Shown in pieces: positions 5,447-20,304 of a stretch of 54,737 bases of DNA; position 1 is the stretch's first letter; each line of letters begins with the position of its first letter. This DNA is from Bacteroidaceae bacterium. GTDB taxonomy: Bacteria; Bacteroidota; Bacteroidia; Bacteroidales; Bacteroidaceae. The notes beneath the pieces are model-generated. The model was given only the letters and a program-made list of their open reading frames with translations. It ran no database searches and had not been told where the DNA came from. The DNA lies in contig JAFUYM010000031.1 of the NCBI GenBank assembly GCA_017470525.1, forward strand, positions 1 to 54,737, in the 5' to 3' direction. The position numbers and the translations under genes were made by a program.

Positions 5447-6970
5447 TCACTCGTTCTCAATCAAGTTCAGCATCTTGATGGTTGCCTTGATGGCGGCTTC
5501 GGTCTGGTCGGCATCGAGGGCACGGGTGCGGTAAGGCTTATCGTTGTATGTCCATGAGATGCTGGTTTGCACAAGGGCATCGGTGCGACCACCTGGTGGG
5601 ATGCTGACCTGATAGTTGGTAAGCCAAGGGAAGGTGCGGTTGAGTTTGTCCTTGTAGATGTGGCGCACAGCATGGATAAAGGCATCATACATACCGTCAC
5701 CCATGGCAGACTCTTCAAACACATCGCCGTTCACTTCGAGTTTCACCGATGCCATCGGCTTCAAGCCGTATGCCGTCGAGACCATATAGGAGATGAGTTT
5801 CACCTTGTCGTCGGGCGCACTGTGTTTCAGCACATCTGCCACGATGTAAGGCAGGTCTTCCTGCGTGATGAGTTGCTTCTTGTCGCCCAGTTCGATGATG
5901 CGGTCAGTCACCCGTCGTGTCTGCTCTGGAGTCAGTTCCAAGCCCAATTCCTCGAGGTTCTTCAGGATGTTCGCTTTGCCTGAGTTTTTGCCAAGCGCAT
6001 ATTCACGTTTTCTGCCAAAACGTTCGGGCAGGAGGTCGTTGCAATAGAGGTTGTTCTTGTTGTCGCCATCGGCATGCACACCTGCCACTTGCGTGAACAC
6101 ACTCTCGCCAATAATCGGCTTGTTGGGTGGGATGGCGATGCCAGAAAGACTTTCCACCATCGTGGAGACCGTCCCCAAATTTCCCTCATTGACATGGGTA
6201 TGCACATGCGCATGGTCGTTCAAGATGGCTTGCACCGACGAGAGCGGCGCATTGCCTGCCCGTTCGCCCAATCCGTTCACAGCCGTATGCACACCTTTGC
6301 ATCCAGCCAGCACAGCCGCCAGCACATTGCTCGTCGCCAAGTCGTAGTCGTTATGAGCATGGAAATCGAAGTGCAGTTCGGGATAGCGGCTCACCATCTG
6401 CCCGATGAATGCTGCCGTGAGTTGCGGATTCAGAATGCCCAACGTGTCAGGCAACATGAACCGCTCCACCCCACAGTCCTTCAGTGCATCCACAAAGCCA
6501 AACACATAGTCGGGGCTGGCTTTCATACCGTTCGACCAGTCTTCCAGATACAGGTTCACGCTGATGCCCAGTTCCTTCGCGTAGGCGATGCTCCGTTTGA
6601 TGTCTGCCACATGCTCCTCCAGCGTCTTCTTCAGTTGGAAGTGGCAATGCCGCTCACTGCCCTTGCAGAGCAGGTTAATGTGCTTACAGCCACAGTCGGC
6701 AATCCAGTCGAGCGATGTCTTCCCGTCCACAAAACCAAGCACCTCCACCCTATCCAGCATACCACCCTGGCGAGCCCATCGGCAGATGCTCTTCACAGCC
6801 TCCTTCTCACCGTCCGACACACGCGCCGATGCCACCTCAATGCGATCCACATTCAGGTCCATCAGCAACATACGCGCTATCATCAACTTCTCGTGCGGCA
6901 CAAAACTCACGCCGTTCGTCTGTTCGCCGTCGCGCAGCGTCGTGTCCATGATTTCTACATACTTGTCCAT
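5447..6970 (-). CDS. cimA: Alpha-isopropylmalate/citramalate synthase family protein, probably (R)-citramalate synthase
   Basis: Condenses acetyl-CoA with a 2-oxo acid; by type it most likely uses pyruvate to make citramalate for isoleucine synthesis. 507 residues from [17 protein letters not shown]. The earlier ATG at 6994 lies at or upstream of the inferred promoter, so 6970 is preferred. The HMGL-like TIM barrel shows TTLRDGEQ, the metal-binding HAHND and NGLGERAGN; the C-terminal LeuA allosteric domain spans about residues 370-507. In many Bacteroidales this paralogue sits in the leu operon beside leuB. Here it stands alone, about 10 kb from leuACD. Homocitrate synthase is less likely. 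Confidence 0.82.
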   Translation of the reverse strand: MDKYVEIMDTTLRDGEQTNGVSFVPHEKLMIARMLLMDLNVDRIEVASARVSDGEKEAVKSICRWARQGGMLDRVEVLGFVDGKTSLDWIADCGCKHINLLCKGSERHCHFQLKKTLEEHVADIKRSIAYAKELGISVNLYLEDWSNGMKASPDYVFGFVDALKDCGVERFMLPDTLGILNPQLTAAFIGQMVSRYPELHFDFHAHNDYDLATSNVLAAVLAGCKGVHTAVNGLGERAGNAPLSSVQAILNDHAHVHTHVNEGNLGTVSTMVESLSGIAIPPNKPIIGESVFTQVAGVHADGDNKNNLYCNDLLPERFGRKREYALGKNSGKANILKNLEELGLELTPEQTRRVTDRIIELGDKKQLITQEDLPYIVADVLKHSAPDDKVKLISYMVSTAYGLKPMASVKLEVNGDVFEESAMGDGMYDAFIHAVRHIYKDKLNRTFPWLTNYQVSIPPGGRTDALVQTSISWTYNDKPYRTRALDADQTEAAIKATIKMLNLIENE

Positions 6971-16301: not shown

Positions 16302-16943
16302 CTAAAGTTTTTTTTTACCAGACGCGGTTTCTTCTTTCCCTTCGTATGCTTCAATCTTGTCGGTGTTGGACAGGAGGAAGTCGATGTCGTCGTAGGCATT
16401 CATGAGGCAGTACTTCTTGTAGGAATTGATGTCGAAGTGCTCGGAGTGTCCCGTGGCGAGGTTCGTCACCGTCTGGTTGGGCACGTCCACCTTCACCTCT
16501 GCCTGTGGATTGGCTGCAATGGTGTCGAAGAGTTCCTGCTGGAAGTCCTTGCTGACAATGACAGGAAGGACGAAGCAGTTGAGGAGGTTGTTGCGGTGGA
16601 TGTCGGCAAAGGAACTGGAGATGACGACGCGGACGCCGTAGCCGGCAATTGCCCATGCGGCATGTTCGCGGCTGGAGCCTGAGCCCCAGTTCTGACCGCC
16701 TACGATGATTTCGTGCACACCCTTGTGAGGTGCTTCGCTATACTCGGGTTGGTTCATCACGAAGTCTGCCACAGGTTTTCCTTCTGCATCGAAACGGAGG
16801 TCGTGCATGAAGGCATCGCCGAAGAACTTGGGGTCGCGAGTGGTGCTTGCCAAGTAGCGGGCAGGGATGATGAGGTCGGTATTGCAGTTGTCAATCTGAA
16901 TCGGAATGCAGGTTGACTGGATGATGTCAAATTTCTCTTTCAT
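16302..16943 (-). CDS. leuD: 3-isopropylmalate dehydratase small subunit
   Basis: 213 residues from MKEKFDIIQSTCIP; the longer open frame upstream comes from the repeat element and is not used. Swivelling aconitase-type domain with GGQNWGSGSSREHA and NTDLIIPARYL. With LeuC it isomerises 2-isopropylmalate to 3-isopropylmalate in leucine synthesis, and probably also handles citramalate in the isoleucine route. It is separated from leuC by repeat copy B, whose end lies just before the ATG. The C-terminus (ASGKKKL) is encoded by a run of nine A. Confidence 0.93.
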   Translation of the reverse strand: MKEKFDIIQSTCIPIQIDNCNTDLIIPARYLASTTRDPKFFGDAFMHDLRFDAEGKPVADFVMNQPEYSEAPHKGVHEIIVGGQNWGSGSSREHAAWAIAGYGVRVVISSSFADIHRNNLLNCFVLPVIVSKDFQQELFDTIAANPQAEVKVDVPNQTVTNLATGHSEHFDINSYKKYCLMNAYDDIDFLLSNTDKIEAYEGKEETASGKKKL

Positions 16944-17112
16944 ATAAAAGACCCCCTCTGCCCTGCGGGCATCTCCCCCGTGAAGGGGGCGACCATCCGG
17001 CATGTTTTTGCTCAGGGGTTATTGTGTTGTTAGTATTCTTTTCTCATTCCCCTACACCCCGCATGGTCTCCCTCCCCTTTTACGGGGGAGGGTTGGGGAG
17101 AGGGTCTTCTGT
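16944..17112 (-). repeat. 160-base element with inverted-repeat ends, copy B
   Basis: Fills the whole leuC-leuD gap. Read on the minus strand it has the same two modules as 8213-8374 in the same order: GACCCTCTCCCCAACCC to GACCATGCGG, a 57-base unrelated middle, then CCGGATGGTCGCC to GGGGTCTTTTAT directly before the leuD ATG. The middle differs entirely from copy A. Confidence 0.85.
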
Positions 17113-18504
17113 CTACAATTTTCTTGGGTCAGTTACGACTCCTGTGATGGCAGATGCTGCCACAACCAGCGGCGAGGCAAGGATGGTGCGGGCACCGGGA
17201 CCTTGGCGACCCACGAAGTTGCGGTTGCTGGTGGAGATGGAGAGTTTGCCAGCGGGCACCCTGTCGGGGTTCATGGCAAGGCAGGAAGAACATGAGGGAA
17301 GACGGAGTTCAAAGCCTGCCTCTTCCAGAATCTTGTCAATGCCCTCGTCAATAATCTGCTGACGAACGAGCCATGAGCCAGGGACGAGCCAAGCCACCAC
17401 GTTGTCCGCCTTCTTCTTGCCTTTCACGACAGAGGCGAAGGCACGGAAGTCTTCGATGCGACCATTGGTACATGCACCAAGGAAGCAGTAATCGACTGGC
17501 ACACCTTCAAGTTTCTGACCAGGCTGGAACTGCATGTATTCCAACATGCTGAGGAACTGGCTCTGGTCTGCCTCTGGAATCTCGTCGAGCGTTGGAATGC
17601 ACTCGTCGATGGCGATGCCAGCACCGGGGTTGGTTCCGTAAGTGATGCGTGGAGCGATGTCTTCAGCACGGTAGGTCACTTCCTTGTCAAACACGGCATC
17701 GGGGTCGGAATAGAGTTGCTTCCATTCTTCCACCGCCTTGTCCCAGTCGGCACCCTTGGGGGCATATTCACGCCCTTTCAGATAGGCGAATGTGGTCTCG
17801 TCGGGAGCAATCAGACCTGCACGTGAGCCCATCTCGATGGAGAGGTTGGAAAGGGTCAAACGACCTTCCATGCTCATGTTGCGGACAGCCGAACCTGCGT
17901 ATTCCACAGCATACCCAGTAGCACCACTGGTGGTCATCTGAGCCATGATGTAGAGTGCCACGTCCTTGGCGGTCGTACCCTCTGGCAGCGTACCTTCGAT
18001 GTTGATTCTCATGGTCTTGGGCTTGCTCTGCAGGATGCACTGCGAAGCCAACACCTGTGCCACCTCGCTGGTGCCGATACCCATCGCAATGGCACCCACG
18101 GCTCCATGCGTAGAAGTGTGCGAGTCACCACACACAATGGTCATGCCTGGCAACGAAAGTGCCTTCTCGGGACCCACCACATGGATGATGCCGTTGTCCT
18201 TCGTACCCATCGCGAAGTGCTTGATGCCGAACTCGGCACAGTTCTTCGCCAAGGTCTCCACCTGCTTCCGTCCCACAGGGTCGTTGATGACCTCCTGCTG
18301 GTCAGACGGAGTGTTATGGTCGGGCATTGCCACCACATGGTCGGGGCGGAACACCTTGATGTTCTTGTCTCTCAGCGTATCAAATGCCTGTGGACTTGTC
18401 ACCTCATGGGCATACAAGCGGTCGATATACAACTGTGTGGGACCATCCTCCACGTTCTGAACCACGTGGGCATCCCATATCTTGTCAAATAATGTCTTTC
18501 CCAT
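17113..18504 (-). CDS. leuC: 3-isopropylmalate dehydratase large subunit
   Basis: 463 residues, full length for the family. Aconitase-type cytoplasmic 4Fe-4S enzyme. [12 protein letters not shown] and FLGACTNGR are present, and the cluster ligands are the Cys of GACTNGR (about residue 345) and the CSSC pair (about residue 407). Works with LeuD. It starts 3 bases after the leuA stop, so the two are co-transcribed and probably translationally coupled. Confidence 0.95.
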
Positions 18505-18507
18505 TGT

Positions 18508-20010
18508 TTAATCGCGGAATTTATTGATACAATCAATGTAAGCCTCAACGGAGGCGGTGACGATGTCGGTGTTGGCACCGAAGCCATAGTAGAGGTGGTT
18601 GTTGTACTCCACCTGCATGTGCACCTTACCCATGTCGTCGGAGCCCTTCGAGATGGCTTGGATGGTGAACTCCTTGAGGGTCATCTGACGCTTGATAATC
18701 TGCTTGAGTGCCTTGATGGCAGCATCCACAGGACCATTGCCCGATGCGGCAGCCTCGAAGTGCTCGTTGGCGATGGCAAGACCGATAGAAGCCACGCTCT
18801 TCACGCCCATGCCCGTTGTCACTTGCAGGTAGTCGAGTTTCACATTGTGCGTCTCCGAACGGTCGGCACCAGCCAACACGAGGATGTCATCATCCGTCAC
18901 CTCCTTCTTCTTATCAGCCAGTTTGAGGAACTCCTCATAGAGTTTGTCAAGTTTTTCGCCATCCACCTCCACGCCGTTCACGTGCAAACGATGCTTCAGA
19001 GCAGCACGACCCGAACGAGCCGTCAGCACGATAGCGTTGTCATCAATGCCCACTTCCTTGGGGTCCATGATTTCGTAGGTCGATGCGTTCTTCAGCACAC
19101 CGTCCTGATGGATGCCGCTGGAGTGTGCAAATGCGTTCTTGCCCACAATCGCCTTGTTGGGCTGCACAGGCATATTCATCAGCGACGACACCATGCGGCT
19201 GGTCGGATAAATCTTCGTTGTGTTGATGTTCGTCTCGATGCCGAGGTCTGGGTGAGTCTTGAAAATCATCGCCACCTCTTCCAGAGAGGTATTACCGGCA
19301 CGTTCGCCAATACCATTGATGGTCACCTCCACCTGACGGGCACCTGCCAAGACACCAGCCACCGTGTTTGCCGTCGCCATGCCGAGGTCGTTGTGGCAGT
19401 GGGTCGAGAGGATGGACTTGCCAGCGGCAAAAGCATCCACATGCTCGTAGAGGTACTTGATTTTCTCATGATACTCGTTCGGCACACGGAATCCCGTCGT
19501 GTCGGGGATGTTACAAACCGTCGCACCCGCCTTGGTCACGGCATCAATCACACGAGCCAAGTACTCGTTGTCCGTGCGACCTGCATCCTCCGCATAAAAC
19601 TCCACATCCTCCACGTACTTCTTGGCATACTTCACCGCAGCCACAGCACGTTCGATGATTTCCTCTGGAGTGGAGTTGAACTTGTACTTGATGTGTGAAG
19701 GACTCGTGCCGATACCCGTGTGGATACGCTTCCGCTTCGCATACTGCAACGCGTCGGCTGCCACGTCAATGTCCTTCTGCACTGCACGAGTCAACGCACA
19801 GATGGTCGGCCATGTGACCGCCTTCGAGATTTCAACCACGCTGTTGAAATCGCCAGGGCTGGAGATGGGGAATCCAGCCTCGATGACATCCACGCCCAAT
19901 GCCTCCAACTGCCTTGCCACCTGAATCTTCTCAACCGTGTTGAGTTGACATCCTGGCACCTGCTCGCCGTCACGGAGCGTCGTGTCGAAAATAAACAATC
20001 TGTCTGCCAT
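18508..20010 (-). CDS. leuA: 2-isopropylmalate synthase
   Basis: 500 residues. Catalyses acetyl-CoA plus 2-oxoisovalerate to 2-isopropylmalate, the first committed leucine step. The N-terminal TIM barrel carries [14 protein letters not shown] (residues 10-23), the metal-binding HCHND and [11 protein letters not shown]; the C-terminal LeuA dimerisation domain gives leucine feedback. Start at MADRLFIFD. It heads the leuA-leuC-leuD-DUF4234 unit and is preceded by a leucine attenuator (leader peptide 20115-20210, terminator 20061-20095). No leuB follows. Confidence 0.95.
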
Positions 20011-20060
20011 ATATTTGTTAATTTATAAATCCCACAACCATAGACACAGCCACCTATATA

Positions 20061-20095
20061 AAAGTAAAACCTTTCCCACGGTTGTGAGAAAGGTT
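20061..20095 (-). terminator. Leucine attenuator terminator
   Basis: Minus strand: AACCTTTCTCAC, a 4-base loop, GTGGGAAAGGTT (12 bp; 20084-20095 with 20068-20079), then TTTTACTTTT. The 5' arm can instead pair with GGTGAGAAAGGTG of 20135-20148 as an antiterminator. That segment can in turn pair with ACCTTTT inside the Leu codon run near 20173-20179. It lies between the leader peptide and leuA. Confidence 0.8.
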
Positions 20096-20114
20096 AAACA
20101 CTATATCTGTACTG

Positions 20115-20210
20115 CTATGCCCGATAACACGCACACACCTTTCTCACCTCCGACTCAGTAAGTCGAAGTCCCAAAAGGTTGAGTAGCGATGTGTTACCAA
20201 ATGTTGCCAT
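20115..20210 (-). CDS. Leucine leader peptide of the leu operon (31 residues)
   Basis: Short minus-strand frame ATG (20210) to TAG (20115). Starts MATFGNTS and continues LLNLLGLRL, six Leu in nine codons (CTA CTC AAC CTT TTG GGA CTT CGA CTT), then a tail ending VCACYRA. It begins about 12 bases after the inferred transcription start and ends before the terminator. When charged tRNA-Leu is scarce, the ribosome would stall in the Leu codons and free the antiterminator segment, allowing leuA transcription. Its position, Leu density and competing stems make it a convincing attenuation leader. The mechanism is inferred from enteric leu, ilv and his leaders. Confidence 0.82.
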   Translation of the reverse strand: MATFGNTSLLNLLGLRLTESEVRKVCACYRA

Positions 20211-20228
20211 ATTTTACAAAATCGGTTG

Positions 20229-20258
20229 CAAAGATACCACTTTCTTTCCAAACTACAA
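20229..20258 (-). promoter_or_regulatory. Promoter of the leu operon leader
   Basis: Minus-strand TTG at 20258-20256, a 19-base gap, then TATCTTTG at 20236-20229. Near-perfect Bacteroidetes promoter, placing the RNA start about 12 bases before the leader ATG. Confidence 0.75.
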
Positions 20259-20304
20259 CCATTTTCATCAAAAAACTTTCAAAAACACACCTAAGAACGC
20301 TTTT

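What the first reader, a model, noticed from the sequence alone, without database searches (positions are those of the whole stretch)
20061..20258. Leucine attenuator with a 31-residue Leu-rich leader peptide before leuACD
A near-perfect Bacteroidetes promoter (20229-20258) is followed by an ATG-to-TAG frame (20210 to 20115) with LLNLLGLRL: six Leu in nine codons, using five different Leu codons or contexts. Four RNA segments can pair in competing ways: ACCTTTT within the Leu codons, GGTGAGAAAGGTG, AACCTTTCTCAC, and GTGGGAAAGGTT followed by TTTTACTTTT. This is the layout of enteric leu, ilv and his attenuators, here in a Bacteroidales genome where such leaders are little described.
Basis: partly seen in the sequence, partly recalled or inferred. 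Interest (0 to 1): 0.75.

Follow-up and report, generated by a model that had tools for sequence, protein, structure and literature searches.

The report
Leucine-sensing attenuator before leuACD
A short leucine-rich leader gene and two competing RNA hairpins in front of leucine-synthesis genes form what looks like a classic translation-controlled transcription switch, found widely in the gut and rumen order Bacteroidales, whose leader codons appear to follow which amino-acid pathway genes sit in the operon.

Summary
On the minus strand a Bacteroidetes-type promoter, a 31-codon leader (MATFGNTSLLNLLGLRL..., 20210-20115), an antiterminator arm (20147-20137) and a 12-bp terminator with U-tract (20095-20060) precede leuA-leuC-leuD. 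It beats chance: 1 of 1070 short ATG frames in the window shows this layout, 0 of 24765 in 20 random windows. A Leu/Ile-rich leader with a terminator was accepted in 38 of 42 same-genus leuA upstreams read, 84 of 117 family upstreams read and 23 of 29 order-level loci read. Leu is kept while its codons change synonymously, and terminator and antiterminator arms covary. New here: leaders are mostly Ile+Leu where a citramalate-synthase-like gene (cimA) lies in the operon and nearly Ile-free where it has left, as in this genome (51 of 55 concordant, but only 3 independent pairs). The same genome carries a Phe/Tyr leader (MKSFYGTYFYFYFYFSKE) before pheA. No Rfam family matched the loci scanned. 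The mechanism is a known kind; the regulatory step is inferred, not measured. My searches of an open-access library listed no leu case for Bacteroidales.

The parts
20229..20259 (-). Bacteroidetes-type promoter: GTTG (20259-20256), 19 nt, TATCTTTG (20236-20229)
   Evidence: sequence; consensus TTTG/TAnnTTTG recalled; box conserved before 32 of 38 same-genus leaders
20115..20210 (-). Leader peptide ORF, 31 aa, MATFGNTSLLNLLGLRLTESEVRKVCACYRA
   Evidence: leader accepted in 38 of 42 same-genus upstreams
20160..20186 (-). Leu control codons (CTA CTC AAC CTT TTG GGA CTT CGA CTT); also holds segment 1 (ACCTTTT, 20179-20173)
   Evidence: synonymous codon changes with Leu kept at positions 10, 12, 13, 15 of 25 distinct leaders
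20137..20147 (-). Segment 2, 5' arm of the antiterminator (GTGAGAAAGGT)
   Evidence: starts 15 nt after the first nt of the last Leu codon
20084..20094 (-). Segment 3, 3' arm of the antiterminator and (with 20095) 5' arm of the terminator (ACCTTTCTCAC)
20060..20095 (-). Intrinsic terminator: 12-bp stem 20095-20084/20079-20068, loop AACC, tail TTTTACTT
   Evidence: -16.0 kcal/mol
18508..20010 (-). leuA, 2-isopropylmalate synthase (regulated gene)
   Evidence: NF002086 723.7 bits, TIGR00973 648.6 bits, both over cut-off
17113..18504 (-). leuC, isopropylmalate dehydratase large subunit
   Evidence: TIGR00170 611.4 bits, over cut-off
16302..17003 (-). leuD, isopropylmalate dehydratase small subunit (family match starts at residue 23-25, so the true start is probably near 16943)
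   Evidence: TIGR00171 148.7 bits, over cut-off
5447..6970 (-). Detached cimA-like gene (citramalate synthase), own promoter box TAACTTTG at 6999-6992, no leader with terminator
   Evidence: PDB 3ble E 8.9e-112; NF042433 613.7 bits, under its 950-bit cut-off; upstream read

Best explanation
A ribosome-mediated (leader-peptide) transcription attenuator that senses charged leucyl-tRNA and controls leuA-leuC-leuD. RNA polymerase starts just before the leader ORF and a ribosome follows. With enough Leu-tRNA the ribosome passes the Leu codons to the stop; segment 1 re-pairs with segment 2 and segments 3 and 4 form the terminator, so transcription stops before leuA. With little Leu-tRNA the ribosome stalls in the Leu run, covers segment 1 and leaves segment 2 free; 2 pairs with 3, the terminator cannot form, and leuACD is transcribed. 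The ancestral Bacteroidales leader probably held Ile and Leu codons because its operon also held cimA (isoleucine route); in this lineage cimA left and the Ile codons were lost. Shown: anatomy, conservation, covariation, geometry, codon bias, association with cimA. Inferred: coupling, stalling, the response to leucine, the ancestral state.
For: Layout unique in the window and absent from simulated windows. Leader with terminator accepted in 38 of 42 same-genus and 84 of 117 family upstreams read and in 23 of 29 order-level loci read. In 25 distinct 31-codon leaders, positions 12, 15 and 17 are always Leu and positions 10, 12, 13 and 15 use three to five Leu codons each; at the six Leu positions 31 of 142 codons are CTA and 78 CTT, against 1.9% and 12.2% of Leu codons in 24 window genes (summed by me). 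Terminator: 98.7% of cells paired, 4 pairs changed on both sides; antiterminator: 95.1%, 3 pairs. In L050, L091 and L111 arm 3 reads TTGC for TCAC, with a matching change in arm 4 in all three and in arm 2 in two (L091, L111). The last Ile/Leu codon lies 14-15 nt before the antiterminator arm in 47 of 83 leaders. RNA beyond a ribosome on Leu17 folds as antiterminator at -24.5 kcal/mol until arm 4 is made. The genus also has a Phe/Tyr leader with terminator before pheA in 30 of 30 loci read (42 genomes matched), own genome included.
Against: No expression data. 4 of 42 same-genus and 33 of 117 family upstreams show no accepted leader, among them all 13 read from genus g9, so it is dispensable. 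The inner 5-bp hairpin of the 1:2 stem has no covariation support: 79.2% paired, reached by 55 of 500 shuffles; the outer 1:2 pairing was not tested on the alignment. Some covariation measures are modest: the number of antiterminator pairs changed on both sides is reached by 33 of 500 shuffles, and further pair types by 33 (antiterminator) and 65 (terminator) of 500. With the ribosome stalled and arm 4 made, the minimum-energy fold is the terminator (state D), so the switch needs co-transcriptional kinetics. The detection procedure selects hairpins and Ile/Leu-rich frames, so raw frequencies are partly circular. The Ile/cimA link rests on 3 independent pairs, has 4 exceptions of 55, and G024 (Ile-rich, cimA not found) does not fit.
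Confidence: 0.9

Rival explanations
1. The terminator is switched by something other than a ribosome on Leu codons (a T-box-like tRNA reader, a riboswitch, or an RNA-binding protein), and the leader frame is incidental.
For: A conserved RNA with a terminator is also the layout of riboswitches; part of the leader's C-terminal conservation (codons 16-25) coincides with RNA pairing.
Against: No Rfam family, T-box included, matches at gathering score in the window or in 11 related loci. Leu identity is kept through synonymous changes, and leader codons follow the downstream pathway: Leu or Ile+Leu before leuA, Val/Ile/Leu before ilvD in four genomes, Phe/Tyr before pheA.
Confidence: 0.05
2. The leader encodes a small functional (for instance membrane) peptide or a sequence-specific arrest peptide, not an amino-acid sensor.
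For: 31 residues with a hydrophobic run, conserved within the genus.
Against: Length and sequence vary widely while the Ile/Leu run and, in most, its distance to arm 2 stay; several variants are only 16-19 aa, and in MAYTTIINLLSLRLTRLW the stop codon lies inside arm 2. What is kept is the kind of amino acid.
Confidence: 0.03
3. The Ile codons of other leaders reflect shared ancestry or AT-rich drift, not the presence of cimA in the operon.
For: Only 3 independent contrasts, too few for a sign test to reach 0.05; linked genus g17 has few or no Ile codons in several members (G133, G141); AT-rich genomes favour ATT (inference).
Against: Over random pairings an average of 2.7-2.9 of the 3 contrasts go the predicted way and 0.0 the other way; within genus g1, G001 and G002 (cimA linked) have IIIISIL while their neighbour G025 (cimA on another contig, 6 kb of leuA's contig free of it) has LLNLLSLRL; L234 and L242, with no cimA found within 6 kb, are Leu-rich.
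Confidence: 0.25

Closest known systems
Enterobacterial leu operon attenuator (Rfam RF00512 Leu leader; leu leader of E. coli / S. typhimurium)
   Same: Short leader with clustered Leu codons, use of the rare CTA, competing segments, terminator before leuA. The three CUA codons of the S. typhimurium leu attenuator are discussed in PMC1183508 (passages seen); the rest of the enteric anatomy is recalled.
   Different: No sequence or covariance match to RF00512; Bacteroidetes promoter; leader stop codon lies 19 nt after arm 2, whereas in the classic trp layout it lies before it (recalled); most relatives outside the genus carry Ile+Leu leaders.
Enterobacterial ilvGMEDA attenuator (recalled)
   Same: Mixed branched-chain control codons in one leader, as in the Ile+Leu leaders of other Bacteroidales leuA operons and the Val/Ile/Leu leaders before ilvD in four relatives.
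   Different: Different gene sets; in the window's genus no convincing ilvD leader among 30 loci read, 2 of which could not be judged; G013, found by the model, is the one same-genus exception.
Bacteroid-trp (RF01692), Bacteroidetes
   Same: A candidate cis-regulatory RNA listed for Bacteroidetes (table entry seen, PMC2864571); its name suggests trp genes.
   Different: Its mechanism was not described in the passages I saw; no match here.
S. aureus ilv operon leucine-rich attenuator
   Different: Firmicute; different operon; acts beside CodY.

Membership tests
Ribosome-mediated (leader-peptide) transcription attenuator | Short frame with a cluster of codons for the amino acid made by the operon | tested here: met
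   LLNLLGLRL before leuACD, kept with synonymous changes; that it is translated is inferred
Ribosome-mediated (leader-peptide) transcription attenuator | Intrinsic terminator between leader frame and first structural gene | tested here: met
   20095-20060; stem covaries
Ribosome-mediated (leader-peptide) transcription attenuator | Mutually exclusive antiterminator whose 5' arm is freed when the ribosome stalls on the control codons | tested here: met
   11-bp antiterminator sharing arm 3; 15 nt from the last Leu codon; fold of the free RNA, with an assumed footprint
Ribosome-mediated (leader-peptide) transcription attenuator | Protector (1:2) hairpin | tested here: inconclusive
   Predicted in the window; inner 5 bp no better than shuffles
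Ribosome-mediated (leader-peptide) transcription attenuator | Leucine-dependent termination in vivo or in vitro | not testable with these tools
   No expression data
Rfam RF00512 Leu leader | Covariance-model match | tested here: not met
   No match at gathering score nor at E up to 10 in 19990-20300
T-box (RF00230) | Covariance-model match | tested here: not met
   No match
Bacteroid-trp (RF01692) | Covariance-model match | tested here: not met
   No match

The most novel reading that the evidence does not exclude
Bacteroidales use a set of leader-peptide attenuators (leu with Leu or Ile+Leu codons, ilv with Val/Ile/Leu, phe with alternating Tyr/Phe codons), not matched by Rfam in the loci scanned, and the leader's codons are re-tuned when genes enter or leave the operon: when the citramalate synthase gene leaves, the isoleucine codons are lost. 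This would require close ribosome-polymerase coupling in bacteria that, as I recall, largely start translation without Shine-Dalgarno pairing.
Probability: 0.6. Interest if true: 0.65.

Novelty: new member of a known kind. Interest (0 to 1): 0.5.

Why it matters
Amino-acid attenuators are best known from Proteobacteria; a 2013 survey of Rfam motifs says they may have originated in gamma-proteobacteria (PMC3766115, passages seen). A widespread set in Bacteroidales, abundant gut and rumen bacteria, would widen that picture and implies that a ribosome closely follows RNA polymerase there. The split of one Ile+Leu operon into a Leu-only operon plus a free cimA gene is a natural experiment on how a regulatory leader follows gene content, and leader codons become a tool to infer what an operon makes, here supporting the reading of the second LeuA-like gene as an isoleucine gene.

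Tried and rejected
Rejected or led nowhere: Rfam at gathering score and at E up to 10 (nothing relevant). Own-genome hisG, ilvD and leuB upstreams: no leader-peptide attenuator seen; ilvD has a promoter box followed by a hairpin with a T-tract but no fitting leader. Upstreams of cimA in the window and 20 other genus members (one of them, G001, linked): 0 of 21 have an Ile/Leu run of 5 or more with a terminator by the leuA procedure; 14 of the 20 have a TAnnTTTG box 28-35 nt upstream, and 4 follow leuB. My first guess that cimA sits behind ilvC in G004 was wrong: the ORF is an isopropylmalate dehydrogenase, leuB. The tree had taken a wrong ORF for 8 rows; replaced. Weak model hits at G012, G015, G001 C37, G004 C21, G183 and G191 show no convincing leader peptide and look like plain terminators.

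Choices made by hand: four leader peptides were typed in place of the script's choice (L035, L042, L064, L068) and five loci with spurious picks were counted as having no leader (L037, L049, L095, L103, L107); L002 (paralogue) and L054 (second copy of G002) were left out. L068 was left out. The 26 rows were picked by hand from genera g1, g16, g21, g14, g22, g8 and g19, whose leaders looked alike. Of the 130 family genomes with a leuA match, upstreams were read for the 30 given loci and for 60 of the 100 others; of 67 order genomes, for the 29 given loci besides the window's (two of them family members already counted). Leaders with unclear linkage (6 of 84) were left out of the linkage test; G001 was set to linked.

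Papers: 10 of 10 searches used; the library is open-access PMC only. None of the rows listed was on a leu attenuator in Bacteroidales (one search listed 20 of 853). Passages seen: PMC7366714 (long 5' UTRs with sORFs 'reminiscent of leader peptides' in B. thetaiotaomicron; no leu case in the passages), PMC3766115, PMC2864571, PMC9026213, PMC4833913, PMC1183508; outline and abstract of PMC5794164. Vitreschak 2004 and Lopatovskaya 2010 are not held.

Full report
WHAT IS THERE. On the minus strand the window holds leuA (20010-18508), leuC (18504-17113) and leuD (to 16302), identified by family models over their cut-offs. Between a DUF4932 gene and leuA lie a Bacteroidetes-type promoter (TATCTTTG 20236-20229), a 31-codon leader frame (20210-20115), and a 12-bp terminator with a U-tract (20095-20060). 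The leader reads MATFGNTSLLNLLGLRLTESEVRKVCACYRA. The six Leu codons in nine are CTA, CTC, CTT, TTG, CTT, CTT: four different codons, not five as the finding says. A TAnnTTTG box lies within 60 nt before the leader start in 32 of 38 same-genus and 44 of 46 other leaders, against 148 of 2320 control pieces.

MORE THAN CHANCE. The transcript folds 5.3 standard deviations better than dinucleotide shuffles. Of 1070 ATG frames of 12-60 codons in the window, 2 have six Leu in nine and only this one has a terminator within about 110 nt; in 20 simulated windows 0 of 24765 do.

CONSERVATION. LeuA was found in 43 of 45 same-genus genomes, 130 of 151 family genomes and 67 of 159 order genomes, all at E up to 1e-120 and each count including the own genome. 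I read 117 leuA upstreams (42 same-genus, 75 from other genera of the family). A leader with terminator was accepted in 38 of 42 and in 84 of 117. No leader: four same-genus genomes, all 13 read from genus g9, and 16 others. Of 29 order-level loci read, 23 have an Ile/Leu-rich leader (one mainly Leu) with terminator; two of the 29 are family members already counted. Of 80 named loci (the best of 592 confirmed candidates), 41 have one by a similar, stricter script, among them Hoylesella oralis ATCC 33269 (MITSQIIISILGIRLYPCSWKC) and Phocaeicola coprophilus An818; many of these genomes probably overlap the unnamed set. The closest named relatives (LeuA at least 95% identical) are uncultured Bacteroidaceae/Prevotellaceae, several from rumen or reticulum.

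SELECTION ON THE AMINO ACID. In 25 distinct 31-codon leaders, positions 12, 15 and 17 are always Leu; positions 10, 12, 13 and 15 use three to five different Leu codons each. At the six Leu positions CTA makes up 31 and CTT 78 of 142 Leu codons, against 1.9% and 12.2% in 24 window genes. A preference for CUA is what theory and experiment give for enteric leu leaders (PMC1183508, passages); that it means the same here is inference. Positions 16 (CGA) and 17 (CTT) are invariant as codons, possibly held by RNA structure as well.

SELECTION ON THE RNA. On an alignment of 26 leaders picked by hand from the window-like genera, the terminator stem is 98.7% paired with 4 pairs changed on both sides. 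No shuffle of 500 reaches its paired percentage, its covariation score or its number of changed cells; 3 reach the number of changed pairs and 65 the number of pair types; every slid register scores lower. The antiterminator is 95.1% paired with 3 such pairs; 2, 1, 1, 33 and 33 of 500 shuffles reach its paired percentage, score, changed cells, changed pairs and pair types; slid registers score lower. In L050, L091 and L111 arm 3 reads TTGC in place of TCAC; arm 4 has the matching change in all three and arm 2 in two of them, L050 keeping a G-U pair. Over 82 distinct leaders the terminator is 942 of 980 cells paired, though detection favours hairpins; in 45 window-like ones the antiterminator is 477 of 490. 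In Bacteroides-type genera the antiterminator is shifted: typically GGAAGTGAG pairs CTCACTTCC, keeping the GTGAG:CTCAC core. The inner 1:2 hairpin is not supported by covariation.

GEOMETRY. From the first nucleotide of the last Ile/Leu codon to the antiterminator arm is 14 or 15 nt in 47 of 83 leaders (range 3-18), about what is needed for a ribosome stalled there to leave that arm free. RNA downstream of a ribosome on Leu17, transcribed up to the end of arm 3, folds as antiterminator at -24.5 kcal/mol; without a ribosome the full leader folds as 1:2 plus terminator; once arm 4 exists the terminator is favoured even in the stalled state, so timing matters. The footprint edge of 13 nt is an assumption.

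ILE CODONS AND cimA. A second LeuA-like gene lies 11.5 kb away (6970-5447). It is closest to Leptospira citramalate synthase (3ble, E 8.9e-112; NF042433 613.7 bits, under that model's cut-off) and 30% identical to LeuA, so I read it as cimA, an isoleucine gene; its enzyme activity is not shown. In 62 of the 75 upstreams from other genera it starts within 4 kb downstream of leuA on the same strand. Leaders of linked operons have a median of 5 Ile, those of detached ones 1 (45 versus 33 leaders); those counts are not independent. In a second, partly overlapping set with a tree, 38 linked leaders have at least 3 Ile, 13 detached ones fewer, 3 linked fewer, 1 detached more; the tree gives only 3 independent pairs, on average 2.7 of them in the predicted direction and none against (2.9 with another cut-off). 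Within the window's genus, G001 and G002 keep cimA in the operon and have IIIISIL leaders, while G025 beside them lacks both. Misfits: G133 and G141 (linked, no Ile), other g17 members (two to four Ile), G024 (Ile-rich, cimA not found), G008 (detached, three Ile, before the Leu run), G004/G005/G033/G039 (detached, two Ile). Of 21 cimA upstreams read in the genus (one linked), none has a leader with terminator; 14 of the 20 outside the window have a promoter box and 4 follow leuB.

OTHER LEADERS. A covariance model of the leu leader searched in 41 genomes (own and relatives) hit, in the own genome, only the leuA leader (E 1.7e-18), and weakly other leaders elsewhere: Val/Ile/Leu peptides before ilvD in four genomes and Phe/Tyr peptides before prephenate dehydratase in two. 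Following the latter, all 30 same-genus pheA loci read (of 42 matched) have an 8-of-10 aromatic leader with a terminator, including the window's own genome (MKSFYGTYFYFYFYFSKE, L304). ilvD in the genus: no convincing leader in 30 loci read, 2 of which could not be judged. None of the seven such loci scanned match Rfam.

VERDICT. A leader-peptide attenuator of the leu type, well supported by comparative evidence, mechanism inferred. It is a new member of a known kind; the link between leader codons and operon content, and the wider set of leaders, are the interesting parts. Whether it is unpublished I cannot say: ten searches of an open-access library listed no leu case in Bacteroidales, and two surveys that could hold one (Vitreschak 2004; Lopatovskaya 2010, cited in PMC4833913) are not held.

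Noticed in passing
L304:1327-1380 (own genome, contig C41): Phe/Tyr leader peptide MKSFYGTYFYFYFYFSKE with terminator AGCCCCGCTC...GAGTGGGGCT before pheA; the same layout in 30 of 30 same-genus pheA loci read, no Rfam match in the five pheA loci scanned.
   Followed up: partly
L278, L281, L286, L287: Val/Ile/Leu-rich leader peptides with terminators before ilvD in four relatives, one of the same genus (MIIISNILLNVLRLVVVKNNSCRKKVCGCY).
   Followed up: partly
window 21591-20305, minus strand: ORF starts with about 50 residues weakly like QueC (Pfam E 6.7e-4, 19.7 bits, under the 22-bit cut-off) fused to a DUF4932 protein with an internal signal-peptide-like Met: looks like a truncated queC remnant joined to the next gene.
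   Followed up: no
L163:3000-3300 (G004): leuB 5' region has a promoter box and a hairpin (AAGAGC...GCTCTTTTT) without a clear leader peptide, upstream of leuB-cimA.
   Followed up: no
L197 (own genome, upstream of ilvD): Promoter box TAATTTTG followed at once by a hairpin and T-tract (ACTCCTTTCCCCCGTTTCGGGAGAGGTGT TTTGTT) but no fitting leader peptide.
   Followed up: no
L161 and L166 (G001, G024): Open frames of about 125 aa stand between leu genes in this subclade: before leuC in both (RNFQTASSDRYGLLKSFARE / RNYQTASSDRYGLLKSFARE), and after leuC in G001 (KAWQFSHEFVLMVYKITKTFPEDE, which recalls four-helix-bundle proteins, from memory), so the operon has taken up extra genes.
   Followed up: no
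L010 and L026 leaders: Two same-genus leaders look eroded: L010 has Pro and His in place of two Leu (VLPNLHGLRL), L026 carries an insertion inside the region (LLNLLALRTFGSTESLTGSEV), possibly relaxed attenuators.
   Followed up: no
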